Positions 10,530-34,696 of a stretch of 64,000 nucleotides of DNA are shown piece by piece (position 1 is the first letter of the stretch; each line of letters begins with the position of its first letter). The notes under the pieces were generated by a model. That model worked only from the letters and a program-made list of their open reading frames with translations. It was not told the DNA's origin and did no database searches. This stretch comes from Calonectria ilicicola. Taxonomy: Eukaryota; Ascomycota; Sordariomycetes; Hypocreales; Nectriaceae. The stretch lies in assembly GCA_020809705.1 (NCBI GenBank), contig CP085826.1:7378001-7442000 (forward strand). Reading direction: 5' to 3'. Both the position numbers and the translations under genes were made by a program.

Positions 10530-11035
10530 GCACACTCAATAATTTATGCGGCTTACCTGTGGTAGGTGATAGACTGAGTGTTGATGGAAGAGAAGCGGTG
10601 GAGTTGAAAGGCTCTTTGTGAGCAGATGTCTTTTCTAGTCTTTGCTAAACACGTTGCCATCCGCGCTCTTCTTAGCGGCTCTCTTATGGGTCCGCTTAGC
10701 ATCGATGTGATTTTCTGAGCCGTCTGACTGGTCGAGGAGCGAGTTTGTTGGTCCGCATCAGAGTCTAGTCCAGGCAACCCACCCAACAGGGGGGCTGGAC
10801 CTAAAAGAGGGTGGGTGCTTCGCTCCCAACAACACTTCTTCTTAGCCCGGAGAAAACAATAAATAATTGCTTTTTTAATTTTATTTGATGGAAAATTCTA
10901 TCTTGGGCTAAATTCCAGAGACTATCTCATCTTGGATGCGTGATTGAGGCGGCGATTCTGATGCTAATGTGGGGGTCAACAACACCCTGAGAAGCGATAC
11001 TTATCTTCCCTTTTTGCACTTGAAAAGCTACCTAT
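10530..11035. other. upstream region of the secreted-protein gene, ending at the element insertion site
   Basis: This GC-normal DNA holds the promoter of the preceding minus-strand gene. A 77-codon minus-strand frame (10786-10553) lacks an ATG start and protein features and is not called. The last 11 bp, AAGCTACCTAT (11025-11035), are repeated at 34445-34455 and look like a target-site duplication flanking the whole AT-rich block. Confidence 0.6.
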
Positions 11036-11592
11036 CACTGCTCGTATCCTGTCACACTGATCGTATCCTGTCAGTTGTTTGATTGAACCGTTGTTTGCAT
11101 TTCCTATTCTAGTACACAGCCTTTCCTGCCCTTTTCCTTCCATTATTCTATATTTATAATTATTTAATTTAATATATTAATCTATTTATATTTTTTATTA
11201 TTTATTTTCTTTAAAAATCTTTTTTACTTATTATTTAAGGAAGATTTTTTATTTTTAAATATTTTAAAATATCTTAATATTAATTTTATTATTTATTATT
11301 ATTTTTAAATAAAAATTTTATTTTTTTTTATAAAATTTATTATTTTAAAAAAAAGTTTATATTTTTAAAAAATAAAATAAATTTTAATTTTATTATTTAT
11401 ATTATTTATTTAATATATTTTTTTTATTTTTTTTAAAATATTTAAAAATATTTTTAATTAATTAAATTAAATTTAATTTTATTAATTTAAAATAATTAAT
11501 ATATTTAATTATAAATTTAGATTTTAAAAGATTATTATTAATATAAATAATATATTATTTATAAATAAATATTTTAATTATATATATATATA

Positions 11593-11757
11593 TATAATAC
11601 AGTAGGATTAGAACAGTAGAGGTCTTAATAATATATAATAGAAAGATTAATATCTTCTTCTCTATCTACCTTAATAATAAGCTTATATATACCTTCTAAA
11701 AATATCTAAAATATACATTTATAAGATTCTATATATATTAATACTATTTCTATATTA
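11593..11757 (-). repeat. 3' LTR of element A
   Basis: The 165-bp repeat is fully AT-converted and aligns with 33994-34158. Differences are almost all C-to-T or G-to-A relative to the other copy, for example the GC-richer end of the 5' LTR near 34080-34150 is lost here. Confidence 0.75.
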
Positions 11758-12369
11758 TATCCTAGTATATTTAAGAAATTATTTATTATTCTTAATAATT
11801 AAAATATTATATATACCTTTTTATTTTAAATCTTTATATTTTATATAATCTTTTCTTTTAATTTATTTAAATAATAATCTTATTCTTAGGAGGTTGTTCT
11901 TTAAGTCTTTTTATAGGGGGATCTAGGCTAGATTTTAGATTAATGATTAATAGGGAAGTCTTATATAATTATCTTGATTGTTGCTTAGAAGGATCTAGGC
12001 CTATATTGTTCTCTTATTGGTCTAGCTTAGGATATTTATAAGGTTTTTTAGATTGTTGCTTTGGTAGTAAGATAGTTCTATTTCCTTTTTTAGTTATTAA
12101 TAAGAAGATTTTATAAAATTAGTTTAATTTCTTTTTATTTGGTGATTTTTTTAGGCTAGGAGTAGTAATAGGGGCTTTAGCTTATTTTTTATTATAATCT
12201 TAAAGTTATTAGGCTAATTAAAGAATATTACTTTTAGAAGCTTATTAATATTAAAATTCTATAATTAAATTTAAATTAATATTCTCTACTTAAACCTATA
12301 TAATTTAATAATACTTATAATCTTTCTAATTTATTTAATATCTTTTTATAATTATTAAATTATACTTAT

Positions 12370-12554
12370 TGTTGGAACCAGTCTGCAACAGCAGGCTCGG
12401 CTGCTTTAGGCAGCAGCCCTGTGGGTCAGGTGACCCACGCACACACACATAAACACCACAGGCTAGCCTAGATAGATGAAAAACAAGCAAGATTCACACA
12501 CACCCTAGAGACCTGGCACTAGTGCTAAAACCTACCTTCCCTTTGAATCCAACA
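12370..12554. repeat. 185-bp solo LTR (or MITE-like insertion), almost unmutated
   Basis: A GC-normal island sits inside AT-saturated DNA. It begins TGTTGGA and ends TCCAACA, perfect 7-bp inverted ends with the TG...CA of an LTR. It is flanked by the 5-bp duplication CTTAT (12365-12369 and 12555-12559). No second copy or internal region is present in the window, so recombination to a solo LTR or a tiny non-autonomous insertion are both possible. Its lack of RIP-type change suggests it arrived after RIP of element A, or was too short to be targeted. Confidence 0.8.
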
Positions 12555-14899
12555 CTTATTAATATATTAGTTTTTTTAATTAAGGATTTTATTTACTTTA
12601 TATTAATTAGCTTTATTATTTTTAAAAATTAGTTTAGGTTCTTTTAGCTGGAAGTTATTAATATAGGCTAGTATAAGCTATTAGTATAAGATTATTAGGT
12701 ATATTTTTATATTATTTAATAAATCTAGCTTATATATTAGATTATTAATTATTCTTTTAATTATAAATAGGCCTAATTACTATTATAATTATTTATATAG
12801 TAATTTATTTAATAGGTAGTATTTATAATATAATTATAAGTAGATCTTATTATTAACCTTAAGTTAGATTGATTAATACTTAGTATTATACTACCTCTTC
12901 ACCTTAGCTACTATAAAATCTATAGTTAATTATACTTTCTTTTAAATAGCTTCTTTTAGAAATAATAGATCTATATTTTCTATTATTAGTTATACTAACT
13001 TTATTAGGCCTTAGAGAGTAATCTTATAAATGAATTTATATATAGAGGCTTTAATTATAGTATTAAATACTTTATTTAGATTTTATTATAATATAAGTAG
13101 AATATATAATCAATCTTTTATTAAATACTCTATATAATAAAAGTATATTATTATTTTAATTATTTAATTATATCTCTCTACCAATCTATTAGTTTATAAA
13201 TAATATATTATTATTATTATTATTTTTATTTTAAAATTTATTTATAAATCTTTTTAAAATTTTAAATTAAATTTACTATTATAATCTAAAATAATAACTT
13301 TTAGTATATTTTAGTTAAAAAGTATAAACTATTAGACTAGTATAATTGCCTACTTTTTATCTATATATTTAATAAATTCTAAAATTAATAAATATCTTTT
13401 ATTTATTATATAAATAATTATTATTAATTAATTATAAATATCTTATCCTTCTAATACTTATAATAATCTTTTTATTATTATTAATAGAAGTTTAATAATA
13501 AAATCTATTATTATTATATATATAGATAGAATTAAAGGTCTATTTAATAAGTAATTCCTAATAGTTTATTAGTAGTTAATTTACTTAAGGTAGTATATCT
13601 TATATTTATAAATATATTTTTTAATTTATTATATTAAGTTTTTAATATAAAGACCAGATAGCTCTTTTAATATTCTTTCCTTATTAAAGTAGTACTAGTT
13701 ATTGTAGGTTATTTTTAGGAATTTATTAATTATAAAGTGAGAAATATAAAGCCTATAATATTCAAACTAGCTATAATAGTATAAGAGTTTTTTATATAAT
13801 TTAAAATATACTTTATATTTTAAAATATTTATAATATTCTTATTATTAAATATTAAAAAATTTAAAATCTTTTTTCTTATTATTATATTAATAATTTTTA
13901 TATAATATATATTATTAAAATATCCCTCTTAAAACTTTCTCTTAAACTTCTTTATTATTAAGATTTTTATTACTACTAGTATATTATCTAGAGCTATATA
14001 GTTAAATTATAATCATACTTGGTTCCTATTGGTCTTTAAGATTACTAAGTAATTTAATATATTTAAAATAAAGTTCTTCTTTTTAAAAGGTAGTATATAT
14101 TAAGCTTATATTTTAATAAGTAGATTAAAGTAATTATTAATTTATAGTTTACTTAGTTTATACTAGATATAATAAGTGTGGTTTTTTTATAATTTATTTT
14201 ATTATAAAGTAATTTATAAAGGTAATTATTAGGTATATTAATAATTAGATATATATATATAATCTTTTAATTACCTATATTAAATATACTATCTTTAATT
14301 CTAATAGATTATAGTTTCTTTTTATTAAGCTAAAAATATAATTTAGAAAGTAAATAGGTTTTATTATTATTATTAAAATATATAATATCTTATTTTATTT
14401 ATAATTATTTTTAAAATAAAAAAGTATTACTTTAAAGTCTCATTAAATACTTATATTTACTTAAAAGTATAGTTTCTTATTTTATTTAAAGTAAAAGAGT
14501 ATTTTTATATTAATTACTTTATATTAGATTATTTTAAATATAAATCTTTCTTTTTTTATAAAATTATAATATATTATATAAATATAAGCCTTTTATTTAT
14601 TAAGATTTCTATTAATTACTTTATCTTATTTATATCCTACTTTTAATAATATAATCTTATATTTTTATAAAAGCTTTATAAATTAAGTATAATATAAAAT
14701 AAAATACTTAATATATTCTATAATTTTAATATATTACTTTAGAGCTAATAATTAGATTAAGAACTTTAATTTTGCAAATAATATAATCCACTTCTTTATA
14801 ATAATTAAACTAAAAATATCTACTTAAAAATCAAATATCTATATATTAAAATATTTAATCTAGCTCTTTTTAAAAAAGATAATAATATTCTTTTCTTAA

Positions 14900-15010
14900 A
14901 AGAGTTTAAATAACTTCTATAAATATCTAAAGTACTTTTCTTCTATCTTAAAGAAAATTATAATATTATTAATAAAGACTTTATAGAATTTATAATATAG
15001 GTATAATAAA
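14900..15010 (-). pseudogene. reverse-transcriptase core of element A (decayed)
   Basis: Read on the minus strand, this stretch gives a recognisable gypsy RT palm segment: FINNIIIF followed by a lysine/glutamate-rich helix and LRYLQKLFKLFQEKNI. The catalytic aspartates are converted to asparagine and surrounding frames contain many stops. The gag side of the same element lies at higher coordinates, split by the later insertions. Confidence 0.6.
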
Positions 15011-15495
15011 TAGTTTATATATTATTATATATATATTAGGAAGTTCTAGAATCCTATTAAAGTAACTATTAATTACTTTAACTTTTAATAATTAATTATT
15101 ATAAAATAATTATAATACTTTAATCTTATTTTAAATTAGAAGAAGAATAATAATATATTAATAGTTATAATATACTAGGCTCTTTAAAGTACTTAGATAA
15201 TATCTTTCTATCTTGATAATAGGTAGTTATTTAGAATAATAATCTTATTAAGGGTATATAAGTTTATTATTATCCTTTTTTTAATTCCTTATTAATTATT
15301 TTCTATATAATAAAGATAGATATTATAAATAAGATTAGTTTTTTAATCTATTCTAATTTACTTTATTAGTAGAGTTTATTAAACTTTATATTAATAAATT
15401 ATTAATCTCTTAGGCTAGATAGATAGGGATACTAGAAGATAGTTTACTTATATTAATTATTAATAAGTAATACTTATAGCTCTTTACCTTCTAAT

Positions 15496-15892
15496 TATAA
15501 CGGTCTGGTCAATTCCCAACTTAATAAACCAATCAAAACGAAGGGTTTATTGTTAGCAGGATGGTTAGGCGCGTTATGGTAAAATAGAGCAATGGAAGTA
15601 TTATATTAGGTAATAGTCAATTGTAATTAAGGTAACCAAGTTATATTAAAAGCTGGTTAATATTAGCTATAAGGGTGGATTCTAATCTGTCTATATATTA
15701 TTATTTTAGTAGGTGCTTATTGTATTAGTTCTATTTAAGGTATTGGTAATTGGGTTGGTAATTATAGGGCGATTACTAATGTTATGGGTAATTGTAAGTG
15801 AATGCTTTCTTATTAGTTGGTATAAGGCTATAGGGTAGGTAGGTATTAGTTCTATTGCTGTAGATTGCCTAGGTGTGTTATAGGTTATAATA
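15496..15892 (-). repeat. 3' LTR of element B
   Basis: This 397-bp repeat aligns with 22008-22404. Differences are dominated by C-to-T and G-to-A. Its right end reads AGGTTATAATA where the other LTR has GGGTCATAACA. Confidence 0.85.
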
Positions 15893-17559
15893 TAATATCC
15901 CCTCTTTGTTGGTCTTGTCCTTAAGGTCTATTAAGTTGACCTTATGTATAAGTATCCCATTTTTATCCTTTAAAAATTATTTCTCTAATTATGCCTTATA
16001 ATCTAGGTAATTCTAAGTAGTATTTTCATACTAAAGCCCAAGCTTAGCTTATTAATTTAATAGATTTTAAAGTTATATTATATTCTTTTTATTTCTCTAA
16101 AGATCTATAATATAAGATATTGCTAGATTTTAGTAATTATTATAATAAGTGCACTTATTATAATAGAATATATAATACTTTAAAGGCATCTTTAACTATA
16201 TATATATTATTTTTTATAGTAATAAATATAATTAATTACTAACTTTTATAATAAATTAAATAAATTAGAAATCTAATTATTTAAATGTAAAGGAGGAGGT
16301 AGCTAAGGAGGAGTTTCTTTATATATAAGCGAAGGTGCTTATTACTTAGGCTAAGATTCAGGAATCTTTAAATCATTTATCCTATCTCCATTATTAGAAA
16401 TATTAGCTTAAGATAAAGGGTGTGAAGATAGTATATTATAATCTTTCTTTTTTGGATGAATTGGAAGAGGTGGATTGGGTGGAGTTGGAGATTATTATTT
16501 AGGTATAGTCTCTGGGGATAATAGATATTATTAATTAGAATGTTATTGATCTTAATGGCTTGTTTAATGTTGTGTTCTTAGGAATATTTCTAGCAATTTT
16601 AAGTAATATATAAGATATTTGGCCGGTTCTTATATTATTTCCTTATAATCTTTCTATTTAATTTTGAATTTTCTATCTTCCTCTTTTTTTTATAGGATTT
16701 TTTTACTTTCTATTGATCTTTAAGGTTTTCTATTTATAGTTTATATATTAGTCCGGTATTGATTTAAATACTATCCTTAGATTTAAGAAGAGAAATATAA
16801 AAGATAAAGTATATCTTAATATTATTAGGGAGGTTGAATTTATAGTTATTTTCTGATATTTTTCTTTTTATTAGGTAAGGTTTGATTTATATAAAGTTGA
16901 TTTTTTTATTCTGTTATTTTATTATAAGATTTTTTATTATTAGGTAAACTATATCTCTTTCTGAAAAGATTAATCCTTTTAATCTTTTTAAATTATAATA
17001 TTTTTTTATAATATTATAGATAAATTCTAGTTTAGTTTTTATTTTTTTATATAGTTTTCTTAGATTATCTGACTTAATTATTGCTTTTGCTTAAATTATA
17101 CCTTCTAAAGGGGCTTAATAAGTATCTAGTATAAAGCTAAAGTTAGCCTTTATTAGTATTATTTTAATACTATAATTATAGGATATATTATATATTAATT
17201 ATATAATAAATAATTTTTCTATTTAATTGGTTTGCTTATAATTAATATAATATTATAGGTATTACTTGATTTTCTAGTTTTAGTATTCGGTTTATCTATC
17301 TATTTAGAGGTAGAAGACTGTGTTTAATTTATAGTTTAATCTTATTAAGAATATTAGGCTTTACTAAAACTTAAATATAAATGGTTATCTTTTATCTAAA
17401 ATAATTTTAGTTGGTAATCTATATATAGTGATTATATTTTAAAAGAAAAGATAAATAAATTATTTTTCTTTTATTGCTTTATTATAGAAAAAGTAATATA
17501 TTACTTTTATAAAGTAATTAATAATAATAAAAATACTATTATAATATACTTCTATAGTA

Positions 17560-17620
17560 GGGTCTACTAATAAGGGAAGGTTAATAATAAAGTCTATTAT
17601 AATCAAGTCCTATAATCATT
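17560..17620 (-). pseudogene. integrase core remnant of element B
   Basis: Minus-strand translation gives IDFIINLPLLVDP, the degraded form of the DFITDLP-type start of the retroviral-type integrase catalytic core. It lies downstream of the RT segment in element order, which is the Ty3/gypsy arrangement (RT before IN). Confidence 0.6.
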
Positions 17621-18869
17621 ATATAATAGAGGATAATTATAATAATCTATATAGTTTATATCTTGGTTTTTTGGAGTATTGATATAGGCTATATTCCTTA
17701 TATACTTGTTTAACTTTCTTTTTTATCTTACTAAAAGAAAATATCTATTTGACTTATTTAAAGGTTTTATTAATACCTTTATAGCTATATAAAGGATATT
17801 TGTAAATATCCTTTATTAACTCTATTTGATATTCTTCTAGTACTTGTAGATAGTTTGTTTTTTCTTCTTTTGAAAGTATTAGATTATATTCTTCAATTTT
17901 TCTTAATAGTAGATTGCCTTATTTCACTTATTATATTAGTATTTCCACGGTAGTAGTTCTAGTTGTATATAGTAATCCTCTTACTTTTATAATAGTAATT
18001 ATTTTCTTTATTTCTATTATTATTTTATTAATTAGGATTTATTCTAATTCTTTATTAGTATTATAGATTAATAGTTTTTCTTATATTTTTGGTTTTTTTA
18101 TATTATAGTTAGGTTAGTAGTTGATTATATTGGTATAGTTGTTTTTAATTCCTTTAATATAGATAATTTAATAGTTAAATTTAGATAGGTATTCTATATA
18201 TTATAGTTACTTTCTACTAAATTTTTAAATAATTATAAAGTAAGTAATATTTTTATAATTAATATATATTATAATTTTATAATTACTTTTTAAAAGATAT
18301 TATTAAAATTCTTTAAAAATATTAATAATAGTAAGGAATTCTTTATTATAGATTAAGTAGTTTAGCTTAAGGTTATATAGCTTATATAAGTAAAATATTA
18401 TAGGATATAGATTTCCTTATTTATCTTATTGTTCGATCTAGGCCTCTAAGGCAAAGTCCGATGTATTGGTTTCTAGCTCTATAAGCTTATTAGGGTTGAA
18501 TATTGTAAGGATAGGTTCTTTTAAAATAGTATTTTTTATAGCTTTAAATAATTATTATACTTTATTTCTTTATTAAAAGGTAATTTCTTTTTTAATTAGT
18601 TCTATTATACTTAAGGTAATTTTACTAAATCTTTTAATAAATCTTTAGTAATAATTAATAAATCTAAGGAAGGCTTATATTTCTTTTATATTAATAGGTT
18701 CCTTTTAATCTTTTACTATAATGACTTTCTTTAGATTTATATGAATTTCATTAAGGCTAATAATATATCCTAGAAATTCTACTTTTTAAATATAGAACTT
18801 GCTTTTTTCTAGTTTAACTAGGAGTTTGATATCTTAGAGGGCTTTTAAGACCTTATAAATGTATTCTTT

Positions 18870-18930
18870 ATATTCTTCTTCATTTTTAAAGAAAATAAAA
18901 ATATCATTTAAGTAATAAATAATAAAGATA
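18870..18930 (-). pseudogene. reverse-transcriptase core of element B (YLDD changed to YLND)
   Basis: Minus-strand translation gives FIIYYLNDIFIF. The family has YLDDI here; the first catalytic Asp is replaced by Asn through a G-to-A transition, as expected of RIP acting on the opposite strand. This alone would inactivate the enzyme. Confidence 0.7.
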
Positions 18931-20989
18931 TTTAAGTATTCTTATAATATATTAGTTATTATTTGCTAAAATAATACTAATATATTTATAAGTCTAAAAG
19001 ATATAATTAAGTATTCAAACAATCTAAACTTTATTTGGAAAGTAATTTTTTATTTATATCCTTCTTTAATATAAATAAGATTATATACTCCTTTAAGATC
19101 TAATATAATAAAGATATTAGCTCTATAAAGGTGATCTTTTATTTTATTAATTAATAATAATAAAATATAATTTTTAATAATAATATTATTAAGCTATTAG
19201 TAATCTATAATAAGATATAATTTCCTATTTTTCTTAAGTATAAATATAATAAGGTAATTAGCTTTAGAGTTTAAAATATAAATATATCCCTTTTTAAGTA
19301 TATCTTAGATATATTCCTTTAAAGTATTAAGCTTAATTTAATTAAGATTATAAATAAAGTAAAATTAGATATTAGATCTATCTTTAAGAATAATTTCATA
19401 ATCTTACTAGCTAAACTTAGGTAGTCTAATATTTAGTTCTTTTACAAAGAGCTTTTTATAGATTTAGTACTATAAAGGTACATTATATAGTCTGTCTATT
19501 TCTACTTTAGCCTTTATTTTTTAAAGCTTTTATTAATTTATTGGAATTATATTCTAAAGTAGGTAATTATTTATTATTTTTACCTTTTCTAACCATTCTT
19601 ATACTTATATTTTATTCCTTTAGGTAGTAAAGATTCTTTTTACTTATATCTTTTACTTAATTAAGGCTAGAAGTTCAAGATCTCTTATTATAGTTTATAG
19701 AAATATTATTAATTATATTATATTTCTTAAATATTTACACCTAGCTAGTACACTAGCAAATATTAAGGTTATATTAGTATAACTATAGGTACCCTAAAAC
19801 TAGATTATACTATCTAATATTAACAATATTAAAGATTACTCCTTAATTTTTTCTTTTAATAAAGACTTTTAAATAATTAATCTTTTTATCTATAATATTA
19901 TTATTATAGCTAAAAGGGGTTCCTTCTATATTAATAATTTTATATAGGTTGACTTTTATTATCTATAATAGCTAAAATTAGTTAATTACTTAAGGATTAA
20001 TATAATTTTATTTAGCTCCACTATCCACTATAGTATTACACTATTTCCCTTTAATCCTTATTTTTATTTCTAATTATTATTAAGATTATTCTTTAATTGT
20101 AAAATATAGAGCTTTTTAGGGAGTTCTTTTAATAACTCTAAGAATTATTACCCTAGCCGCTCCTACTACTCTTTTATAGGAGGCTTTACTTATTTTTAGT
20201 TTTATTTAATACTAGGCTATTACTTTATTTATTATATGGATATTATATTTAAAATCTTAATATTTATTCTAGAATAATTTACTATAATTAAAGAACTTAA
20301 GCTTATTTAATTCTAATATAGTAAACTAATAGTAAAGGTTTCTTTTTATTATTTTATATTAATTGAAGTATCTTTTATAAATATAGTAAATAATTATATC
20401 TTCTACCCTAATAGAGAAGTATACTATATACTATTTTTACTTTATATATTAAAGGTAATTATAATTATAGTAGCTTACTTATAAGATGTTCTTATATTCT
20501 TTATATGCTGTGTTTAGTTTAGGGTTATTTTCCTTATATTAGATAGATTAGGGATTACGATTTTCTAGTTGTTATTTACTTTATATAAGTAGGAAGACTT
20601 TATCTCCATCCTATAAGAATTCCTTAACTTATTAAGCTATTCTTTTAATATTAATTATCTATTTCCTATTTCTATTTTCATTATAAATATAAGTATTCTA
20701 CTATATTAATACTTTATTATTATATATATTTAAGATAGATATAGGGATTTTTATCTTCTTGGCTCATTTTAACCATTTGTGGGGAAGGTAGGACTAGCCT
20801 TCTTATTAGGTTAACTATACTTTTTAGATAGCTTTATTAGTTTCTTATTATAAAGTAAATTTTACCTTATATAATTTATAATTTTTTATATATTATTTAA
20901 TTATAATAATTGGTTTATATTTCTTAATAATAATAAGAATAATTTTTCCTATAATATCCTTTTTTCCTTTTAATACTAAGGTTTATTTA

Positions 20990-21860
20990 GTTTTTATAAT
21001 ATTAAATTATTTTTATCCTTTTAATATAGGTTTAAACTAATTTCTTATTTTTAAGAAGTAATATTTAAAGGATTTATATCCTTTCTTTTTACAATTAAAG
21101 CAAATAATCTTACTTTTATTATACCCTTAGATAGTACTAAGTTCTATTAGTCCTAAATGAGTCCTATATATAATACTTTATTATTTATTTTAGATTTTTC
21201 CTTTATTTAGGATATATAGGTTTTTATTATCTTAGGTATATTTTTTATATTGGTTAAATTATCTTTTGTCAATTTTGATAGTACTTTTAATATACTTTAA
21301 GAGTTTCTTTAATCAGTTTTCTTTATAGATTTTATTCTTAACTTCACTCTTTAAGCTTTTATAATAGAGTTCTATTAATATATTATTATCTTAGGCTATT
21401 TGTATTATAATTCTTTTAAACTTAGCTAAATACTAGCTATAGAACTTTATTTATTTAAATTTATATAATTAGTTTATAATTTATTATTTTATATTAATTA
21501 TATTGAAATTATCTTTAATAATAGTTTTAAAATGTTCTTAGTCTTTAAAGATCTCTTAGATCTTTTTATTTTAGTTAGTATTATCCTTATTTTCTAGATA
21601 GTTTCTTATAATAGATTCAAACCATACTCCTATATCTCCTTGGAGGAGGGTTTTAATATATAGTACCTGGGCTTTAGGGGTTGTAAATTATATTAGGAAG
21701 AAACAGAAATATCCCTTCATTTAGGTAAGGAAGAGGACTATATTAGTAGCCTTTTCTAGAAAGGGTTCTAGGACCAGGGGTCTCAAAATTTTACTAATGT
21801 CTTTACTCTTATTTCCTTTAATTATAGTGATTCCGGCTTTTTCTACTTTAAATTATATTT
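20990..21860 (-). pseudogene. Gag region of element B with degraded CCHC zinc knuckle
   Basis: Minus-strand translation from about 21850 downward shows a typical gypsy capsid pattern (PLVLEPFLEKATNIVLFLTQMKG... GVWFESIIRNYLE... YLAKFKRII). It ends in ICFNCKKKGYKSFKY at about 21110-21066. The CX2CX4HX4C knuckle is still visible, but His and the last Cys are both Tyr. Each is one C-to-T or G-to-A change from the expected codon. Confidence 0.7.
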
Positions 21861-22007
21861 ATATATCTATAAGTTTCTTCTTAACCTATTATAGTTCTGT
21901 AGTTAATTTAGTATTACTAGAAGGAGTAATAGTAATAAGATTCTTTCTGGATATTATTATTATTTAATTATTAATATAGATAATTAACTAAATAAGAGCT
22001 TTTAATA

Positions 22008-22404
22008 TATAATAGTTTGGTTAATTCCTAACTTAATAAATTAATTAGAATAAAGGGTTTATTATTAGTAGGATAGTTAGGTATATTATAGTAAAATAAA
22101 GTAATAGAAATATTATATTAGATAATAGTCAATTGCAATTAAGGTAACCAAGTTATATTAAAAGCTAGTTAATATTAGCTATAAGGGCAGATTCTAACCT
22201 ATCTATATACTATTATCTTAGTAGATGCTTACTGTGTTAGTTCTATCTAAGGTGTTGGTGATCGGGTTGGTGATTATAGGGCGATTATTAATGTTATGGG
22301 TGATTATAAGTGAATGCTTCCTTATTGGTTGGTGTGGGGCTATAGGGTAGGTAGGTGTTAGTTCTGCCGCCGTAGACCGCCCAGGTGTGTCATGGGTCAT
22401 AACA
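22008..22404 (-). repeat. 5' LTR of element B
   Basis: This 397-bp LTR aligns with 15496-15892. Its right-hand 90 bp (about 22310-22404) keep normal GC content, unlike the rest of the element, so it records the pre-RIP sequence. A short minus-strand open frame here (22400-22218) is LTR sequence, not a gene. Confidence 0.85.
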
Positions 22405-23036
22405 CTAATACTTCTACTAAGCTTATATTATTTTATAATTAAATATACTTTTTTATTAAAGCTTTAATCTTTTTAATAAAGTAATTATTTTAATTATAAA
22501 TATATATTCTTTTTATTATAATAATCTTAAGAAGATTAAGTATTTACTAGATATATATTTAATATAGAATATTTAATTATTTTTTAAATATTAAAATAAA
22601 GTTTTTAATAATTTTATTATTTATTTTAATAATAATAATTTTTAGTTTTTATATAAAATATATTATTACTTTTAAAAGTAATTTTTTTTTATTTTTAAAG
22701 TAGCTTAATTATATATATATTAATAAAAATAATATTATTAAATAATCTTATAATTATATTAACTATTATTAATTAGTTTTAGTTTATTTTATAATTATTA
22801 ATAATAATTATTATATTAATTAGGATAAATATAAACTTAAATCCTATAATATTTATCTATAGTAAAGATATACTTTTTTCTTTAGATATTATATTTAGAA
22901 CTTTACTTTTAAATATTATATAAATTATAATTATAATTATAAGTACTTGGATCTATATGGTAACTATAAATATCTACTTTTTCTTATATTTAATAATATT
23001 ATTAAGCTTTTGCTTCTAATAGAGCTTAATAGTCTT

Positions 23037-23845
23037 GTCTTTCATATAGTTATTTTCTTCCTTTTAGGAAAGGAAGATGCCGACAAGGTCACGGGACCTA
23101 AAGGCACGCCTCATAATAGACTTTCACATCGATTAGTACAATCGCCCTTATGCCAACTCTGAAGCCTAAAGGCAACATAAGATGAAAACCTTGATAAATG
23201 GAACCCTCATACAATAAAAGGAAGAATTTTCTACCAGCCAGAAATGCAGTAATGCACACTCAAACAAACCTCTCTCAAACAACCCTCTCTCAAACACACA
23301 CTAAACAGACCCTCTCAAAAACACATGCACGCACAATTAAGATGTTTAAATAATACATTATTTATAAGGGTAATAGCCCTTTAGAAATAGAATCTATAGC
23401 TTAATATATTTATTAAGAAATCTAAGTTAATAATATTAAGTTGAATATAAAGGATTAAAAACTAGAAAAACTTTAAAAAGAAGTAATAAAAGTATAAAAG
23501 TAAGATAATATAAAGGATTAGATTAGAATTAAGCTAATCTTTTAGAAATATAAATTTTTTTTAAAAAAAGAATTTTTTAAATAAAAATAAAACCTTTATT
23601 TAAAAGTAATAATAAATAATAAAACTAATATTAAGGTATTTTAATATATTTAAATATAAAAGATTTTCTTTTAAGAAAAACTAAAAGAGATTTTTGAAGA
23701 AAATAAAGAATAAGGGTTTTATGTGGATTGATATATTGAATTGAATAGTTATAAATATAGTATAGTGGAAGGAAAAAGGTAAGAAAGGTAGAATAGGAAA
23801 TGTAAACAATGGTTCAATCAAACAACTAACAGGATACAAGTAGTG
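23037..23845 (+). mobile_element. element X copy 2, 809 bp, 12-bp target duplication
   Basis: This complete copy is flanked by CTTAATAGTCTT on both sides (23025-23036 and 23846-23857). It begins GTCTTTCATATAG and ends CAAGTAGTG. The first 300 bp (to about 23340) and the last 110 bp are GC-normal; the middle is AT-rich. It lies in inverse orientation to the split copy at the edges of the block. There are no terminal inverted repeats, LTRs, poly(A) tail or credible ORF; the open frame at 22947-23162 merely crosses the left junction. I infer a non-autonomous element of unrecognised class, and two independent copies with long target duplications make its borders reliable. Confidence 0.78.
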
Positions 23846-25862
23846 CTTAATAGTCTTTTTAAAGTTATTAATAATTATAATTTTAGTTAAAGTGTTATAA
23901 TTAATTATTATATTTATTATATATTTAATAAAAATATAAAATATAAATGTTTAATCTTTAGGAATTTTTTCTAAGTTGTTAATATAATATATGCTTATTC
24001 TATAAGAATAACTATATCTTTAACCACTTTAATTTATTAAATTACATTCTTCTTTAGGTGATTAATATAGTATAGGATATAGAAGTTATTTAAGGTATTA
24101 TAATGAAGCTATTTTTATAATATAATAATATTAATCTTATAGGGGTCTAAGAAACTATTTTTAAAAAAGCTTTTAATTTAAGTTTATCTTATATTTATAT
24201 ATTAATTATAAACTTTATTATTTACTTAGTAGTTCTATTAATATTTATTCTTTTAATAAATATATTAAAGGTTATTTATTTACTAATTTAGATTATATTG
24301 CTAATATTATTAATAGATACTAGGGTTCTTTGCTTTATAGTATAATTAAATAGCTATAGTAGCTCTTTATTAATTATAGAATTTTTATATTTTATATTAG
24401 TATAAATCTCCTTTTTTCCTTACTATCCTTACTAACTTTAATCTTAATATATATATAAGTATAATATATATTACTTACCCTTACTTTTTTATATAAAATA
24501 AATAGCTTATTTATAAATAATAATTACTTAGGTTTCTTCCTTTTAGGTTTTTAATACCCTTTATTAAAATATATAAAGAGTTTATTATAAAAGAGGAAGT
24601 CTTATTTATAGCTTTTATAATATACTTTCTTAAGGGGGATTATAAGTGCTTTTTTAGCTAGCTTTATAGGTTTTATATAGGTATTAATATATATATGTTC
24701 TTTAAGGAGGATTAAAAAGTTAAAGGTATATTTATATTAAGTATACTTATTCTTTCCTTAGGTATTTTATAGGATCTATCCTTATAATAGTATATAATAT
24801 TTATTTTAAAAAGCTTTAAAGGTAGTAGACTTATTAAAGCTTGATTTGCTCTTTTTAGGGCTAGATTTTTGTTTTTGGTTGGTAAGTTCTTTTTTAGTAA
24901 GATATTTACTTTTAGATTTTGTTTTTTTATTTTTATATAAGTTATCTTTAGTAGGGTATTATTGTTCCTAGGATTAGTTCTAGTTCTTATATTACTTATT
25001 CTTATAATAATAATTATAATTATAATTATTTAATTATTTATTATTTTAATAAATATAATATTCTTATTTATTAATATTATTATATCTTCTTTTATAATAT
25101 AATTATTAATTATTTTAATATTTTTATTAAAAGTTTATTTATTTATTTTTAAATATTATTATATTAATATTCTTTTTTTAATTTTTATAATTTTAAATAA
25201 ACTTAATAATAATTATTTTAAATATTAAAATCTATAATAAGTATATAATCTTATAATTAATAAGTAGGAAGATTATTTTAAGAATCTCTCTATCTGCCTA
25301 TATTCTAGCTTATTTAGCAAGCTTAATTTTACACTATACCTAAAGAGGAAGAGATATATTTTATTAAGTAGAGTTAAGTATATATTTCTTAATTATATAT
25401 TTTTCTAATAAATCTAACTTTTAGGGCTTAAATTATTTTATAAGATCTTAATAAAAGTAAAAAATAAAACCCTTTATAATCTTAATTTACTTTTTATTAT
25501 TAAGCTCCTTTATTAATTATTTATAAACTATACTTTAAAATATTATAAAATAATATTCTTAAAGAGAATCTTTATTAAATTATTTAAAGATTTTAAAATA
25601 TATATAAAAAAATTAATATTAATATAAAATTATTTATTTTATATAATAATAAGTTTTTACTTTTTAAAATCCTTAAAATCTAAATTAAAGGTTCTAATAA
25701 TATTATATTTAACTTATCTTTTATTTATTTAATTACTTATTAAAAGTAATATATAAAATTAAATATATTATAATAAATTAAAGCTTATATTTAAAAAATT
25801 TAATAAATTAAAAAAAGTAATAAATTATTTAGATAATTATTATTATTATATTTAGTTTATAA

Positions 25863-26037
25863 TATCACACTTTGGTCATTGGGTCATAACAAGAGATTAA
25901 AAGAGCCTTAATTCCTATGAAATAAAGAGCAATCAACTATATGTTTTATAGCTAGGTCCAGCCCCAATTGGCTATGGGGCTACAATAACGCATTAAGGCC
26001 ATGAGGCCATCGAGGCCAGCCACAACTAGTCTCCATA
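25863..26037 (-). repeat. 3' LTR of element C
   Basis: This 175-bp LTR keeps a GC-normal core (about 25950-26030) and differs from 32531-32705 mostly by transitions. Confidence 0.85.
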
Positions 26038-27519
26038 CACCTCCCATTCCACAATCTATTATTATAAACTATTAAATATTGTAAATAGCTTTACCTTTAT
26101 TGTTATAACTTTATATAAATGAATATAACAATTAAAATCATTCCTTAAAGTAATATCTTAGAGGTAATTATAAAGTTATGCTCCTTAAAGTATAAGAAAC
26201 TTAATTCTAAGTAATATTTATAATTTAATATAGTTAAAGTTTATAAATATTATAGTTTTTTATGCTTATAGCCTTACTTCTTTCTTCCTTATCTATCTCT
26301 AGCTTTAATATAATAGTCTAAGATTTCTTTCTTTTACTTATAAGTATATATAATAACTTTATTTATACTTACTAATATTATATTCTAGCCTATTATTACT
26401 TATTTTTAGCATACTATTATTAAAAGATCTAATCCTAAGCCAATATAAACTCCTTTACTATTTACTCCTAAATGTACGCCTATAAGTATTTTTATACTTA
26501 CTTTCTATATTTTATATAATTAATCTATATTTTATAATATACCTAGATCGCCAAGCCTAGAACTCCTGATTCTTAAGTTAAGACTTTAGGTTCTTGTGCT
26601 TTAGACTTTTCTTCTTATACTTGACCTTTGGCTTCTAGTGCTTTAGGAGTATTATTTAATCTGCTCTATAAAAATTACCTATACTTTGTTATTATTGGAA
26701 AGAGCTAGCTTAAGAATTATTATATAGTGGAGGGATATTCTAAGTATTATATTATTTGTAAAGTAAGTAATTATTAATATTACCTTTAGTATATTTATAT
26801 TAGCTAATTTTATACTTTATTATTAATTTATAAATAATTATTAAGTATTTATATTTTTAGTATATTGCTTTATTATTATTTTAGATAATAGGGAGTGTTA
26901 AGTAAGTAAGTATTATTTAGTCTACCTAGAGCTTTATATTAATTAATTATATAAATAGTAATTTATATAAAGTATATTTTTTATTTACTTATAAAGATCT
27001 TAAATGAGAGTTCTAAGCTTTTTAAATAAAATATTAATAAGATAGTTACTTAAAGAATAAATAAAGGAAAGTTCTAAAGTACTATTAATAATCTAGAGAA
27101 GTAATATTTATATACTTATATTTTACTTAATAAATTTGTAAATATTATTATTATTTAAAGTATATTTAAAGAGTAATATAATATATAATTTAATAATTTT
27201 AAATATTATTTAAGAAAGAGCTAAAATAAGCTTAATTTAGTAAATTATTTTTTTTATATATTATTTTTACTTTACTTAATTAAAGTCTATTATATTTAAT
27301 AGTGCTTAAAATTGCTTAAAGTATTACTATAATAGTACTTTAATAAGCCTATTAGCAGGCATTTGCCCTATTTCTAGATAAGTTATCTTAAAGGAGCCCT
27401 TTTCATACTCTTAACATAACCATATATTTATAATATCAATATACTATAGTTAGGTTATTATTTGGCTGTCTTTTTTAATAATAAGTTATATAGTTTAAAG
27501 GTTATTATACTGTAGATTC

Positions 27520-27745
27520 CAGTCTGCCTCTAGGTTAAAGTGTATTTCACTGAAAAGGCACTTTAGGCCAATTGTTTTCTTTGTAATATATTCTAAAGCA
27601 AGCATTTCTATCTTTGTTATTAATATAATTATAGTAGCTTAGCAGGTGGCCTTCTATATAACTAATTTATTAAATAGGCTTATTATATAGTCTTGTGAAG
27701 ATCTTTGTGTTTTAGGGTTATTAATGAAAGAGGTATTACTGGCAA
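27520..27745 (-). pseudogene. RNase H remnant of element C
   Basis: Minus-strand reading gives KATCQATI-like sequence followed by KIEMLALEYITKKTIGLKCLFSEIHFNLEAD, with scattered stops. This corresponds to the C-terminal RNase H stretch of copia polyproteins (the SSTEAEY-like region and following helix). Confidence 0.55.
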
Positions 27746-28215
27746 TTATTATAGCCTATAATTTACTGCTCTAATTGTATTAAATTATAAGGCCTTATGT
27801 TATGAAGAGATATTAAATAGCTTGGTTAATAACATTTTAATGCTCTTAACTTAGGTTAGTAAGAAAATAGGATAATAATAATACTATAAATATAAGGTCC
27901 GGTCTAATTATTATTACTATATATAGTAAAGAACTAACTTTTTCCTAATATATCTTTATTTCCTATATAATTACTTAATCTTACCTTTTAGCTAGCTCTA
28001 TTACTAGAATTAGTATACTAGAGTAAGTATTCATAGCATCTAATTTAAACTTTATAATTATTTTCTTAATATATAAATTATAAAATAAATATATCTTATA
28101 CTTTATATAATCTTAAATTATCTTTATATCTAGGAACCATTATATATTACCTTTATCCAAGGTCTTATACATTTCCTTAATACTTTTTATTATTCCTAGC
28201 ATTATAGATACATTA

Positions 28216-28330
28216 TTCCTATAATATAATACTAGAATATTATCTATAAAGAATATAATAAATATATTATAAGCTTTAGTATAAAATAAGCAAGGCTCTT
28301 CCAAGCTAGCTTCCATTCCTAACTTCTTAA
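28216..28330 (-). pseudogene. reverse-transcriptase core of element C
   Basis: Minus-strand reading gives KKLGMEASLEEPCLFYTKAYNIFIIFFIDNILVLYYR. The copia RT order (EEPCLF, then VDDI about 18 residues later) is kept, but the second catalytic Asp is Asn. Confidence 0.7.
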
Positions 28331-31300
28331 AAATTAAAACAAACTCATTAAACCATAACTAGGGCAAATCTCTAAGATTATATAGAGCTTAGTCTAGCTC
28401 TATACACTTATTTAACTACTTAAATCTATCTAATAACTTACATATAACTAATACATTATCTTTACTTCTTATTATATTAATAAAGGTATTAATAATATTA
28501 AATTACTTAATTTCTAAGTCAAATTAAGCAACTAAAGCAATGATTATATAGAATGACCATACTACAAGTATTATAATATATATACTCTCAATTATAAAGC
28601 TTTCCTACAAATCATCTCAAACATATAACCTTACCTTATATCATTCAAGATATCTATCTTAATTAAATTTATAAATAAAGACCTATTTAAGCAACAACAA
28701 TTTGGTTCATACCTTTATATACTCTATTTCTCTCCATATTCTCTTTTTAATTAGGGTTCTAATCTCCTAATATATTACTTAAATAAATAGCTTATTTAAT
28801 AGATATTTTATTATCTCTCTCCAATTCTATAGGAGCTTAAGAAGATCATCTTAATATAGCTTAAGGCGGTTTAATACTATACTAATCTAAGCAGCTTCCT
28901 TCTACTTTACTACTCCTATAAATATTATAAATATGATTTAAATATTCTTAGGATCTATATAATTTATCTTATAGTAATCAATTATAAAGAAATTTAATAT
29001 TAAGTTCTTATTACAATCTTGCCATATTAGAGTCCTTTAGTTCTACCTTATATTACTTCTTTAAGCTTGGTGATAGCATATTCATATACCTATAAACATT
29101 TTAAATAACTAATTAATCTTACCTTTAACCTCTATCTCTTCTATATATAAATTCTAACTCCTATTCCTAGCTTTATAATATACTAATATTAACAATAATT
29201 ATAAGCTTTAATAGCTTAAATAGCAATATAACTACTACTTCCTTTACTATCTTACTTACTAATTAATTTATTACTTACTCTAATTATTCTAATTACTTAT
29301 CTACTATCTTAGGTATATATACCCCTAAGCTTATAAATTATTCTATTAGTAATTAGTCTATTATACTTATCTCTATTTATTATACCTAACCTATACTTTA
29401 TTAAGCTTCTACTATACTCCCTAAATACATATTTTCTAATTCTAAAATTTATTCTAGTATTTAAAGTCCTATAAGCATTTAACTAAATATATACTTAGTA
29501 TCTTTTACTATACTTTAAGTAATTATTTCTATATTTATAAACACCTCCACCCCCAAATTTAAATCCACAAACATTAATCCTTACAAAGATCCCTTATATA
29601 TTGCCTTATTATCAATTTCCTCTTCAATTTAAAGAGCCTAATCTTTAAATTAGATGACTATATACTCAACTAAGCTTGGCTCATCTGGTTCATAACCAAT
29701 ATACTTATTAAATTACATATTTCAAATCATAATAACCTTTACAAATCAAGATATCTATATATAATATATATTATAAGCCATATATCCCACTAAATACCCT
29801 ATATAGCCTCTAAGGCTAACTTTCATATCTCTCTTTTATTAGCCCAACGCCCTACCTCCAACTAAAGAATAAACACAATAACCATATATATATACACCAT
29901 TCCAATTAAGCCTTAAATCAACTATAAGCTCTCTTATTAGTAAAAGAGTATAATACCTAAACCATATATCTAACTTCTTAAGTAAGAACATCCAATTCCT
30001 TATCTTTAAAGGTAACATATTAAGCAAATATACAGCTATTCTAGTGCTCTCTAACTATAGCTTTATTAGAAGCTTTACTCTATTAAGCATTACATTAAAC
30101 TTATTTATTACTTCTTAACCTATATATTTAATAATACCATTTAGCTCATAGGTCTCTAATAGAAAAAGCTCCAAATCTATACCTTATTCACATACCCATT
30201 TTTAATATTCAATTAGACCTTTAATCATAATAATAGCAACCTCATTATTATACCTAATAATACATATTAAGAGGCTAAATTACCTCTTAATCCAGCTCTT
30301 AAACCAAAATAACTCATTAAATATAGTAATTCCTTGCTTATTGGCAATAGATTATATATAGAATATGCCACTGTATTTATCTTTTATAACTAGGAGCCAA
30401 TTAAAGCTATTATATCCTTTAAGGTAGTCTTACAAGTCCTAATAAATATACCAAAATAGCCTTAGTAAACGGTAATCTAACTGCCTATATAATATAACCT
30501 GTTTTATATACATTCAAGTATAGGTCTTATAATCTATCCTTATAGTTCCTTTAATTTACATATTATAACCCCTTCTTACTAGCTCCCTTAGTATTATAGC
30601 TCTAAGATACCTTACTTGTTTATATTATAGCTTCTTAGTATCCTCCTTTAGCTTTAAAGGGTCCCTTAAAGATCTAAATTAATAAGTAAAGCTTTATCTT
30701 TTATTTTTTAATATAATAATAATTAACTAAATATCTATATTATTAATTAAAATTATATTATTAAATATTAATTAATTTAATAAATAGATAGAAATTAGCT
30801 TATATTAAAGAATTATTATATTATATATATATTTATATTTAATTAAAAAAACACTTTACTCTAAACTTCTAAAATACAAAGAGCAATTAAAGCCACAATA
30901 CCAAACTCCAACCTCCCTTAAATAAGCTTCTAATATAATATTGATATAAAATCCTTCTACTACAATAACATTATTAAGCTCTAGGTTAACTATATAAACA
31001 CCAATTAAATCTTTAAATAGGTTCTTTAGTACATATTTGCCTTTTCCTATGATTAGAAACTAGCTCAAGCCTACCTCCACATAGCCTCCTTTTTCTAACA
31101 CAAAGGATCCTTCCACAAGCTATTTCTTTAAGTTAACTAAGTAAATAGCACTATAATTATCAATTAGTATGCTCTAATAAAGCAGGTAAAGAACTATTTC
31201 TAATATTATAAACACTAATATAGCTTTTTATACTATATATAATAATATTAGATTAAGAACTATAGTAATAATAATTAATAGAATAATATTTTATTTATTA

Positions 31301-32516
31301 TTTTTTATAATTATTATAATAGATATCTAACCTTTCTATACTACCTTCTCACAAAGCTTATTCTATTTAAACTCCTAAAATCATATATATATATAAGCAT
31401 AGTCCTCATCTATTAGCTTCTTATTAAACTTAAAATCAAAGTCTTCTATAAGTATATATTAAAGATATATGCACTTAGCTATTATAAATTTATAGAATTT
31501 TCTATTATATAAGCATTTAGAGCTCTTAAAAGAGGCCATTTACTATATCTCTAAGAGGTCTTCTAGTATAGCATAAATGTCTATACGCTTAGAATTTAAC
31601 TAACTTAAGATAACTCTTAGAAAGATATTTCTATAGCTCTTAAGTAAATTAATTATTTATTTCTTAACTTCTTTTTCTATAAATTAGTCTAATTAGTTCT
31701 ATACTTAAGAAGAAGCAAACCAAGTATTAATTACTTAAAGAAAATTATAAATAATAAGCATTTCTTTAATTTTAAAAATATTATAAATATTACTTTAAAC
31801 TTAAATTAAACTTTAAATTATATATTAAGCTTTAGATTCTTAATTTATATAATTAGTATCCCTTAAATAGTTTATATAGCATAATCTTACCTTATTAATT
31901 ATACTATTTTCTCCTAATATAAACTTCACTTTAAGAGCTTTAATAAGCTTATAAATAATATAATCTTTATATTATTTAGTAACCTTATTAATAATTTCTT
32001 AGTAATAAGCTTTCTTAACAATCTTAATAATCTAAGCGCACAGAGCTAACTTCCCTTAAGCTCTCTCTTTAAAGGTAATAAGCTTGAAGTCAGCCATTTT
32101 AAGCTCTATTCCTAATCTCACAATAATATCTGTATCTTGCGGTATACCTATTCATCCCTTTTCCTTCCATTCATCCCTCATCTTTTTCTCCATTTCATCA
32201 AAGGATATTAGATTAGGAGTAGTATTCAAATTATCTACTATATTTTCTTTATTAAGGTTAATATATTCCTAGAGCCTTAGGCTTTATGTATAATCTCTTA
32301 GTATAAAGATCCATTCAATCTATTACTTTAATAAGTAGAGTTTAATAGTAATTAAAAGTCTTTAAGCACTTATAATACTAATATTAACAGTTATTTTAAG
32401 TATATAATAATAATAATTATTATATCTAATATTAGAAAATAATAAAAAAAAGCGTTGTTTGGTCTATTTAATTGAATATAAGATGTGATAGTAGAAGTTG
32501 CTAGCTTATATAGCTA

Positions 32517-32530
32517 CCTGGGCTTATAAC
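32517..32530 (-). promoter_or_regulatory. primer-binding site of element C (half-tRNA iMet type)
   Basis: Directly inside the 5' LTR the minus strand reads GTTATAAGCCCAGG. Apart from one G-to-A change this is complementary to the anticodon arm of initiator tRNA-Met (GGGCTCATAAC), not to a tRNA 3' end. Drosophila copia is known to prime from an internal, half-tRNA iMet site, so the position and sequence fit that mechanism. Confidence 0.6.
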
Positions 32531-32705
32531 TATTATACTTTGATTATTAGGTTATAACAAGAGATTGAAAGAGCCTTAATTCCTATAAAATAAAGAGCAG
32601 TCAACTATGTGTTTTATAGCTAGGTCCAGCCCCAATTGGCTGTGGGGCTGCGACAACGCATTGAGGCCGTGAGGCCATCGAGGCCAGCCACAACTAGTCT
32701 CCACA
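32531..32705 (-). repeat. 5' LTR of element C
   Basis: This 175-bp LTR is GC-normal from about 32600 to 32700 and less mutated than the 3' copy over that part. Confidence 0.85.
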
Positions 32706-33993
32706 TATAATTATACTAATTTATAATAATACTTGCTTAAATAGACTAAGATTTATAACCTTTTATTATTAGAGATATCTAGGCTAAAGTATACTAAACT
32801 TCCCCTTTAAATTAATTAGATTAATTAGGTAAAGTAATTAGCCTCCCTTAGGCTAAAGGGGTTATTTTATTATTTAAGTTCTTATTTATTTATAAAGATT
32901 AGGTTTTTTAAAATAAGTAAATTAGGTATAGTAGTATTTATAGGTATATTATTAAGTTATAGTATTTTATTAAAAAAGATTATAAGAAATCTAAAGAAGT
33001 TTAAAAATATAATATATTTAGTAGCTTCTTATCTTTAAACTATTAAAGTATTTAAGTATTAAGTTTTAATTTAAGGTATATTAATTAAAATAGTAATATT
33101 CTAATAGCCCTATTTAATAATATTATTTATATAATCTTTTATTTATTAAATAAAAATAATATTTTAAAAAGTAAATTTACTAAAAGTCTTTATTAATTAT
33201 TTCTTAAATATTAATTTATTATAATAAACTTCCTATTTTATAACTCTTCTTACTTTCTCTTTATTTAAAAATTAATTTTTATATTATTTATTAGGTTTTA
33301 TAATAAATATTTTTTAATTAATAATTTTAGCTTTTTAAAGCTCTAGTTAGGGCTAGGAGATATTATTCTTTATAAATCTTACCTTTTTATTTTTATTTTT
33401 TTTAAAGATTAGGTTTATTAAGGAGGGATCTTTTTCCTTTTAGGAAGATGTAGGCTTTACTAAGGCTAAGGCTAAGATAATAGGTCTTATTATATTATTA
33501 TAAGTTTATTTAATAATAAGAAAGTAGTATATAAGAAGGTATTTATTTTAAATAAATTAAAGTAATAATTATAAAGTATAAAATAATATTAATTAATAGA
33601 AATATAAATTTATAATTAAATTATTATAATTATTATAAAAATTAAATAATTTATTATAATAAAAATAATATTAATAATTTTAAATCTTATTTTTATAATA
33701 AAAAAATTCTTTTTATAATTTTATAAAATAACTTAAGATTATTTTATAATTTTTAATAATTAATATTTTCTTTAAATTATATAAATAATTAAATAAAGTA
33801 TTCTTTATATAAAAAAGGATTTTAAAAAAGATTTTAAAAATAAATTTATAAAAATTATTATAAATATTTTTTTTATTAATTAATTAATAAATAACCTAAT
33901 AATATATTATATTAAAATATAATTTAAGATTATTTAATATAATTATTTAAAATAATATTATAATATTAATCTTAAAAAAAGTAATTATTACTA

Positions 33994-34158
33994 TATAATA
34001 CAATAAGATTAGAACAATAAAGATCTTAATAATATATAATAAAAAGATTTATATCTTCTTCTCTATCTATCTTAGTAATGGGCTTATATATGCCTTCCAA
34101 GGGTGTCTAAGGCACACACTTACAGGGTTCCATATGTGTTGACACCATTTCCGTATCA
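33994..34158 (-). repeat. 5' LTR of element A
   Basis: This 165-bp repeat aligns with 11593-11757. The terminal 80 bp (34080-34158) remain GC-normal, so this copy is the better guide to the original LTR. Confidence 0.75.
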
Positions 34159-34696
34159 ATATATTTAAAAATATATATTTAAAGGTTTTTTTTAATATAT
34201 ATTTAAAAGAGGTTTATTTAAATATATATTATTATATTTTTAACTAATAGAAAATTCTTTCTTTTATTATATAAGGATTCTATCTATTAAGGTTTTCATT
34301 GTGTATTGCCTTTAGGCTCGAGAGTTGGCACAAGGGCAATTGTACCAACAGATCTGAAAGTCTATCATGAGGCATGCCTTTAGGTCCCGTGACCTTGTCG
34401 GCGTCTTCCTTTCCTAAGAGGAAGAAAATAACTATATGAAAGACAAGCTACCTATTATATTAAAATAATGATAATTATTTTACATGTATACCTTAATTTT
34501 CAAATCGGAAACATGGAAGCTAAATTGTAAAACTTAATTCGTCGAATAGCATACAACCTATCCTCTGCCGCGAATCGCAGTTTCTTGTCCTAAAAGGAAA
34601 CAAAAAGTCTTCAATCTCAATCCCTTGTTTAGTAAATTCCATCCCGAAATCCTAGTCGTGGAATCTCCAAGAACTACTATGGCTCATTGTCCATCT

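What the first reader, a model, noticed from the sequence alone, without database searches (positions are those of the whole stretch)
11025..34455. A 23-kb nested stack of insertions with every border readable, predicting one clean empty site
The AT-rich block resolves into nested insertions whose target duplications are visible: X copy 1 (AAGCTACCTAT), element A (ATATA, weak), element B (CTAAT), X copy 2 (CTTAATAGTCTT), element C (TATAA) and a solo LTR (CTTAT). Subtracting the insertions leaves an X of about 0.83 kb and an element A of about 7.8 kb, both sensible lengths, which independently supports the nesting. Strains lacking the block should show DNA left of 11036 joined directly to DNA right of 34455, with one copy of AAGCTACCTAT.
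Basis: seen in the sequence. Interest (0 to 1): 0.8.

Follow-up and report, generated by a model that had tools for sequence, protein, structure and literature searches.

The report
Nested transposon stack in fungal DNA

Summary
The nest is real. X1 (11036-34444) holds LTR element A (11595-34158); A holds solo LTR D (12370-12554), B (15496-22404, Ty3/gypsy-like), X2 (23037-23845) and C (25863-32705, Ty1/copia-like). All six have exact target duplications. Net A is 7,791 bp by subtraction; 8 of 10 fetched A copies measure 7,741-7,798 bp. The outer empty site could not be tested: no other strain was available.

Two things go beyond the finding. (1) X is a non-autonomous retrotransposon without LTRs: 37 of 43 copies have 11-17 bp duplications, an AT|GTC 5' joint, and one or two 19-bp tail units. 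(2) The AT-richness is repeat-induced point mutation (RIP): A copies differ from the window's by 637-909 transitions but 1-7 transversions. RIP largely spares the outer ~100-200 bp; reciprocal LTR comparison shows an edge effect, which is why the borders stay readable. Nesting is ordinary biology; the edge effect is the more interesting part.

The parts
11025..11035 (.). X1 target duplication AAGCTACCTAT, left copy
   Evidence: read directly; most X copies elsewhere begin matching within a few bases of its right end
11036..34444 (-). X1, outermost insertion; net about 840 bp (11036-11594 plus 34164-34444) with two 19-bp tail units at its left (3') end
11595..34158 (.). LTR element A inserted in X1; net 7,791 bp; 163-bp LTRs (11595-11757, 33996-34158); TSD ATATA
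   Evidence: three unmutated solo LTR copies start TGATACGG and end CCGTATCA
12370..12554 (+). D, 185-bp solo LTR (TGTTGGA...TCCAACA), little or not mutated, TSD CTTAT; strand as read here
   Evidence: (24 of 24 other A copies found lack it)
15496..22404 (-). B, Ty3/gypsy-like LTR element; LTRs of about 400 bp; reverse transcriptase and RNase H matches on the minus strand; TSD CTAAT
23037..23845 (+). X2, complete 809-bp X copy with one tail unit; TSD CTTAATAGTCTT (23025-23036 and 23846-23857)
25863..32705 (-). C, Ty1/copia-like LTR element; LTRs of about 175 bp; RVT_2 match on the minus strand; TSD TATAA
34445..34455 (.). X1 target duplication AAGCTACCTAT, right copy
   Evidence: read directly; most X copies elsewhere stop matching at its left end

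Best explanation
A fungal AT-rich block built by successive retrotransposon insertions. First an X copy, a non-autonomous retrotransposon without LTRs that inserts by target-primed reverse transcription (inferred), landed in unique DNA. LTR element A then landed in X; after that a D element (since reduced to a solo LTR), B, a second X and C landed in A. RIP mutated the repeats and made the block AT-rich, but in this fungus it largely spares the outer 100-200 bp of a repeat copy, so borders and target duplications stay readable. Shown: the nest, the duplications, empty sites in other copies, divergence that is almost only transitions, and the edge effect in X, A, B and C. Inferred: the insertion mechanism of X, and any order among D, B, X2 and C, which nesting alone does not give.
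For: Repeat pairs nest. Ten of ten fetched A copies lack D, B, X2 and C with joints that fit the duplications. 24 of 24 other A copies found continue across D's site; 24 of 26 continue across C's site by search coordinates, 25 on reading. X copies cross A's site (7 of 11 clear). X ends are sharp, and no other match to the two unique flanks was found. X duplications of 10 bp or more in 37 of 43 copies, against 3 of 1,806 mismatched flank pairs. A copies against the window: 637-909 transitions, 1-7 transversions over 5.8-6.8 kb. C-to-T by next base: CA 0.80, CG 0.83, CC 0.52, CT 0.44. Edge sparing in X: 34 of 38 copies have at most 20% mutation in their first 50 bp. Reciprocal sparing of LTR ends: in the window's A, 0 versus 7 differences in the first half and 25 versus 0 in the second; the same direction in B and C; in 8 of 10 and 10 of 10 A copies for the two LTR halves.
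Against: No second strain or species was available, so the outermost empty site is untested. A shows no protein domain in the pieces scanned, so its class rests on LTRs and duplications alone. Four of 11 distinct X copies gave unclear joints at A's site. Six of 43 X rows lack an exact duplication of 10 bp or more. Four of 38 X copies do not have spared 5' ends; they lie in loci L034 and L035, which hold several X copies each. In 2 of 10 A copies the outer half of the 5' LTR is more mutated than the same half of the 3' LTR.
Confidence: 0.96

Rival explanations
1. The block is a degenerate AT-rich region (for example an old heterochromatic island) in which short direct repeats mimic target duplications by chance.
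For: Base composition is mostly 10-28% GC, so 5-bp AT-rich matches arise easily by chance; a loose self-comparison gives a long list of matches, most at about 57-65% identity, that mean nothing.
Against: Ten of ten fetched A copies join at the four predicted sites; net length agrees within about 1% with 8 of 10 copies; stringent comparison puts the stated pairs at the top; X duplications far exceed a mismatched-flank control.
Confidence: 0.01
2. The spared ends reflect sequence, selection or re-mobilisation: the ends are poor RIP substrates, or mutated copies with intact ends kept being copied.
For: X ends carry the parts that a non-autonomous element should need, and most copies examined keep both ends largely intact.
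Against: The same LTR sequence is mutated when internal and spared when external, in A, B and C. X copies share no more RIP mutations than independent mutation gives: 0 of 351 pairs with z above 3, null mean 0.66 (limited power).
Confidence: 0.07
3. X is a shortened copy of a LINE still present here, rather than a SINE-like family of its own.
For: A little-mutated copy keeps a coding-like stretch of 126 aa; 5'-incomplete copies exist; the duplications are of LINE length (the comparison is recalled).
Against: That ORF has no relative at E 0.001 in the protein database and no Pfam match. Of the 150 scored reverse-transcriptase matches, only one lies within 6 kb upstream on the same strand of any of the 77 exact tail sites, and it lies in a B element that has inserted into an X copy.
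Confidence: 0.4

Closest known systems
Nested LTR retrotransposons in fungal AT-rich (RIP-affected) blocks
   Same: Nesting, 5-bp duplications, solo LTR, GC depletion by transitions (general knowledge of the field)
   Different: Nothing in kind; unusually complete because uninterrupted copies of A and X exist in the same genome
RIP of the Trichoderma reesei type (PMC5496416, passages read: preference printed as 'CpA~CpG CpT>CpC', a sign apparently lost before CpT)
   Same: CpA and CpG equally and most strongly mutated here (0.80, 0.83)
   Different: Here CC (0.52) slightly exceeds CT (0.44), some X middles are fully converted, and the outer 100-200 bp are largely spared; the passages I read do not mention such a zone
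Fungal SINEs such as AfuSINE2/3 of Aspergillus fumigatus (PMC5063351, abstract and section list read)
   Same: Short elements with direct target duplications (there 4-14 bp), and a repeated unit at the 3' end in one family
   Different: X is about 0.8 kb, has no tRNA or other Rfam-like head found, duplications of 11-17 bp, and a 19-bp tail unit instead of a trinucleotide

Membership tests
LTR retrotransposon (A, B, C) | Paired direct LTRs | tested here: met
   transversions between LTR pairs 1/163, 0/397, 0/172
LTR retrotransposon (A, B, C) | Short fixed-length target duplication | tested here: met
   5 bp for A, B and C in the window and exact in 8 of 9 other A copies; other copies of B and C not tested
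LTR retrotransposon (B, C) | Reverse transcriptase of Ty3/gypsy or Ty1/copia type | tested here: met
   B: RT_RNaseH_2, RT_RNaseH, RVT_1, SH3_Tf2-1; C: RVT_2, E 1.1e-7, 32.1 bits against a cut-off of 31.6, so weak
LTR retrotransposon (A) | Reverse transcriptase domain | tested here: inconclusive
   none found in window pieces (not every piece in all six frames) or in one other copy in pieces, six frames; nine copies are 13-23% GC, so decay and non-autonomy are both possible
SINE or other non-autonomous element moved by target-primed reverse transcription (X) | Variable-length target duplications | tested here: met
   11-17 bp in 37 of 43 rows, with up to 3 bases of slack at the tail; mismatched control 3 of 1,806
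SINE or other non-autonomous element moved by target-primed reverse transcription (X) | No reverse transcriptase of its own | tested here: met
   usually 0.7-0.85 kb; longest open frame 159 aa in the six copies looked at; the ORF tested has no Pfam match
SINE or other non-autonomous element moved by target-primed reverse transcription (X) | 3' tail of repeats or poly(A) | tested here: met
   one (18 rows) or two (25 rows) 19-bp units; three adjacent units at one site
SINE in the strict sense (X) | RNA polymerase III head derived from tRNA, 5S or 7SL | tested here: not met
   X2: no Rfam match at E up to 1; five other copies: one weak snR76 match below its cut-off (23 against 55 bits) near the 3' end of one; no tRNA in five copies. 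A box-B-like stretch near the 3' end was seen by eye and not tested. I do not file X as a strict SINE
SINE in the strict sense (X) | Tail shared with a partner LINE | tested here: inconclusive
   among 150 scored reverse-transcriptase matches only one, inside a B element, lies within 6 kb upstream of an exact tail; a partner with a mutated tail, or one not scored, would be missed
RIP | C-to-T on both strands in repeats, transversions nearly absent | tested here: met
RIP | Occurs in the sexual cycle, needs a RID-type methyltransferase | not tested
   needs crosses; the gene was not searched for

The most novel reading that the evidence does not exclude
In this fungus RIP has an end-exclusion zone: the outermost 100-200 bp of a repeat copy is largely spared even when the DNA just outside is itself mutated, and repeats under about 200 bp escape altogether (solo LTR D and three solo LTRs of A stay intact). 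That suggests that the machinery must sense homology on both sides of a base. X keeps its conserved ends inside this zone, so it would be an element whose essential signals RIP hardly reaches.
Probability: 0.35. Interest if true: 0.6.

Novelty: new member of a known kind. Interest (0 to 1): 0.38.

Why it matters
The stack is a clean worked example in which the inner layers can be checked against uninterrupted copies in the same genome. It warns that LTR identity (80-91%) badly overstates age under RIP: the LTR pairs of A, B and C differ by 0-1 transversions, so these elements look young. The reciprocal LTR pattern turns how RIP senses homology into something that can be counted from an assembly.

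Tried and rejected
Loose self-comparison was swamped by AT-rich noise and replaced by stringent scoring. Idea that X begins with a known ribozyme or tRNA-like RNA: Rfam gave nothing above a family's cut-off and ARAGORN nothing; single-sequence folds differed between copies. Idea that mutated X copies keep moving: no shared mutations beyond chance. Idea that a 2.7-kb X-like copy (L070) is the autonomous form: reading it suggests a second element with terminal inverted repeats inserted in X (by eye). Protein search with X's ORF and with the ORF right of the block found nothing at E 0.001. Host by name: a flank protein is 86% identical to one named Ilyonectria destructans, so a relative in Nectriaceae (family name recalled) is likely; species not settled. 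Paper searches showed, in their listings, no title or abstract start describing this stack, X or RIP sparing repeat ends; beyond listings I read only passages of three papers and one abstract with section list, so this is no proof of absence in print. A Neurospora paper on RIP homology recognition that I recalled by DOI is not held.

Mended after checking: A lengths printed are one base too long; the B overlap of 3 comes from a boundary set two bases early; the 12 loci at A's site are 11 distinct copies; transversions among X copies and the distance of tails to reverse-transcriptase matches were recomputed over full lists.

Full report
Where it is. The window is contig 2, 7,378,001-7,442,000, of a 69.9-Mb genome in 12 contigs. 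Flank genes look fungal, and a flank transporter is 86% identical to one named Ilyonectria destructans, so the host is probably a relative in Nectriaceae (family recalled). GC is about 0.41-0.50 outside the block to the left and mostly 0.10-0.28 inside.

Checking the nest. The repeat finder adds A's LTR pair, 11591-11755/33992-34156 (80%). All six target duplications are present. By subtraction A = 22,564 - 190 (D) - 6,914 (B) - 821 (X2) - 6,848 (C) = 7,791 bp, and X1 = 840 bp (559 + 281).

Independent proof from the same genome. A is a multi-copy family; each search scored only the best 40 candidates, so copy counts are lower bounds. All 24 other A copies found at D's site continue across it: 20 with a 4-7 bp overlap (13 of them exactly 5) and 4 with 2-9 unaligned bases. 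Of 26 A copies reaching C's site, 24 continue within 9 bases; one has an unaligned 43-bp stretch that reads as contiguous when fetched (L064); one has a 5.6-kb gap. I fetched 10 A copies: all 10 lack D, B, X2 and C, with overlaps of 5, 3, 12 and 5 bp at the boundaries I set; the B figure is 3 only because I cut its left boundary two bases early. L029 and L036 add two more A copies without B or X2. Measured A lengths, less the one base that my probe added: 7,741-7,798 bp in 8 of 10, 8,139 in one (with a B-LTR-like insertion near position 13580), one not measurable; 8 of 9 with both ends visible have exact 5-bp duplications. A's own site is contiguous in X copies: 7 of 11 distinct copies give a 4-6 bp overlap, 4 are unclear. 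Other nests occur elsewhere: A with X with B on contig 3, A inside C (L060) and A inside B (L061).

What the LTR elements are. B carries gypsy-type reverse transcriptase and RNase H matches and C a weak copia-type match, both on the minus strand. A has no detectable domain in the pieces scanned. D is a 185-bp LTR with copies of 96-99% identity elsewhere, two of them on one strand 5.6 kb apart.

What X is. 40 places scored in one search; 96 exact-pattern 5' ends, 55 3' ends and 77 tail units, each with 0 in the reversed-pattern control. Of 43 copies with both ends found in the fetched loci, 37 have exact duplications of 11-17 bp (up to 3 bases of slack at the tail), 6 do not; pairing flanks of different copies gives 10 bp or more in 3 of 1,806. 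L077 and L078 among them are one insertion copied with its flanks. The base before the element is T in 43 of 43 and A precedes it in 40 of 43; tails hold one unit (18) or two (25). These fit target-primed reverse transcription (established for non-LTR elements; inferred here). No tRNA head and no Rfam match above a cut-off was found, no protein relative, and no reverse-transcriptase match within 6 kb upstream of an exact tail except one in a B element. All 435 pairs of 30 aligned X copies differ by 0-2 transversions, so that group is young. X1 differs from X2 by 43 and 4 transversions over 499 and 243 sites (AT-rich alignment may inflate this) and so probably belongs to an older lineage.

Why it is AT-rich, and how old it looks. 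Ten A copies differ from the window's by 637-909 transitions but only 1-7 transversions in 5.8-6.8 kb, the mark of RIP. LTR pairs of A, B and C differ by 33, 60 and 16 transitions but 1, 0 and 0 transversions. So the LTR identities are useless as clocks. C-to-T rates by next base (CA 0.80, CG 0.83, CC 0.52, CT 0.44) share the CpA-CpG preference reported for Trichoderma reesei (PMC5496416 passages), although here CC slightly exceeds CT. X copies show no sign of shared RIP mutations: 0 of 351 pairs exceed z 3, null mean 0.66.

Why every border is readable. Across 38 X copies, 34 have at most 20% mutation in the first 50 bp, while the middle reaches 100% in some; a few of the 34 are little mutated anywhere. 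The four exceptions lie in L034 and L035, which hold several X copies. The LTRs give an internal control, because the same sequence sits once with its start outward and once with its end outward. Over 10 A copies (nine fetched and the window's) the 5' LTR is mutated 0.17 at its outer end and 0.85 at its inner end, and the 3' LTR 0.68 at its inner end and 0.04 at its outer end. In the window, differences (only 5' LTR mutated versus only 3' LTR mutated) split 0 versus 7 in the first half of A and 25 versus 0 in the second; in B 4 versus 26 and 27 versus 3; in C 3 versus 7 and 6 versus 0. So sparing follows position, not sequence, and holds for B and C, whose outside neighbour A is itself mutated. 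It is not absolute: in 2 of 10 A copies the 5' LTR's outer half is more mutated than the same half of the 3' LTR.

Verdict. The finding is right in every part that could be tested; the empty-site prediction stands but is untested. Nesting is ordinary for fungal heterochromatin. The end-sparing of RIP is the part worth following.

Noticed in passing
G000 contig ends: C5:703, C11:532, C9:5218932, C11:4171287, C7:5676210: Reverse-transcriptase (RVT_1) matches lie within about 3.5 kb of five contig ends, all oriented inward; they may be telomere-associated retroelements.
   Followed up: no
window 45000-60000: GC rises to 0.50-0.58 against about 0.43-0.49 in 35000-45000, a compositional step to the right of the block.
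   Followed up: no
L070 (C7:779300-782900): An X copy split by about 1.9 kb of almost pure AT (200-bp bins from 0.00 to 0.14 GC) whose ends look like inverted repeats; probably a RIP-mutated DNA transposon.
   Followed up: partly
L077 and L078 (near the starts of C3 and C10): Two subtelomeric X copies share flanks and mutations, so they are one insertion copied by segmental duplication.
   Followed up: partly
L075 (C5:1645850-1647600): A 288-bp X copy keeping only about 190 bp of the 5' end and 90 bp of the 3' end, with no clear target duplication.
   Followed up: no
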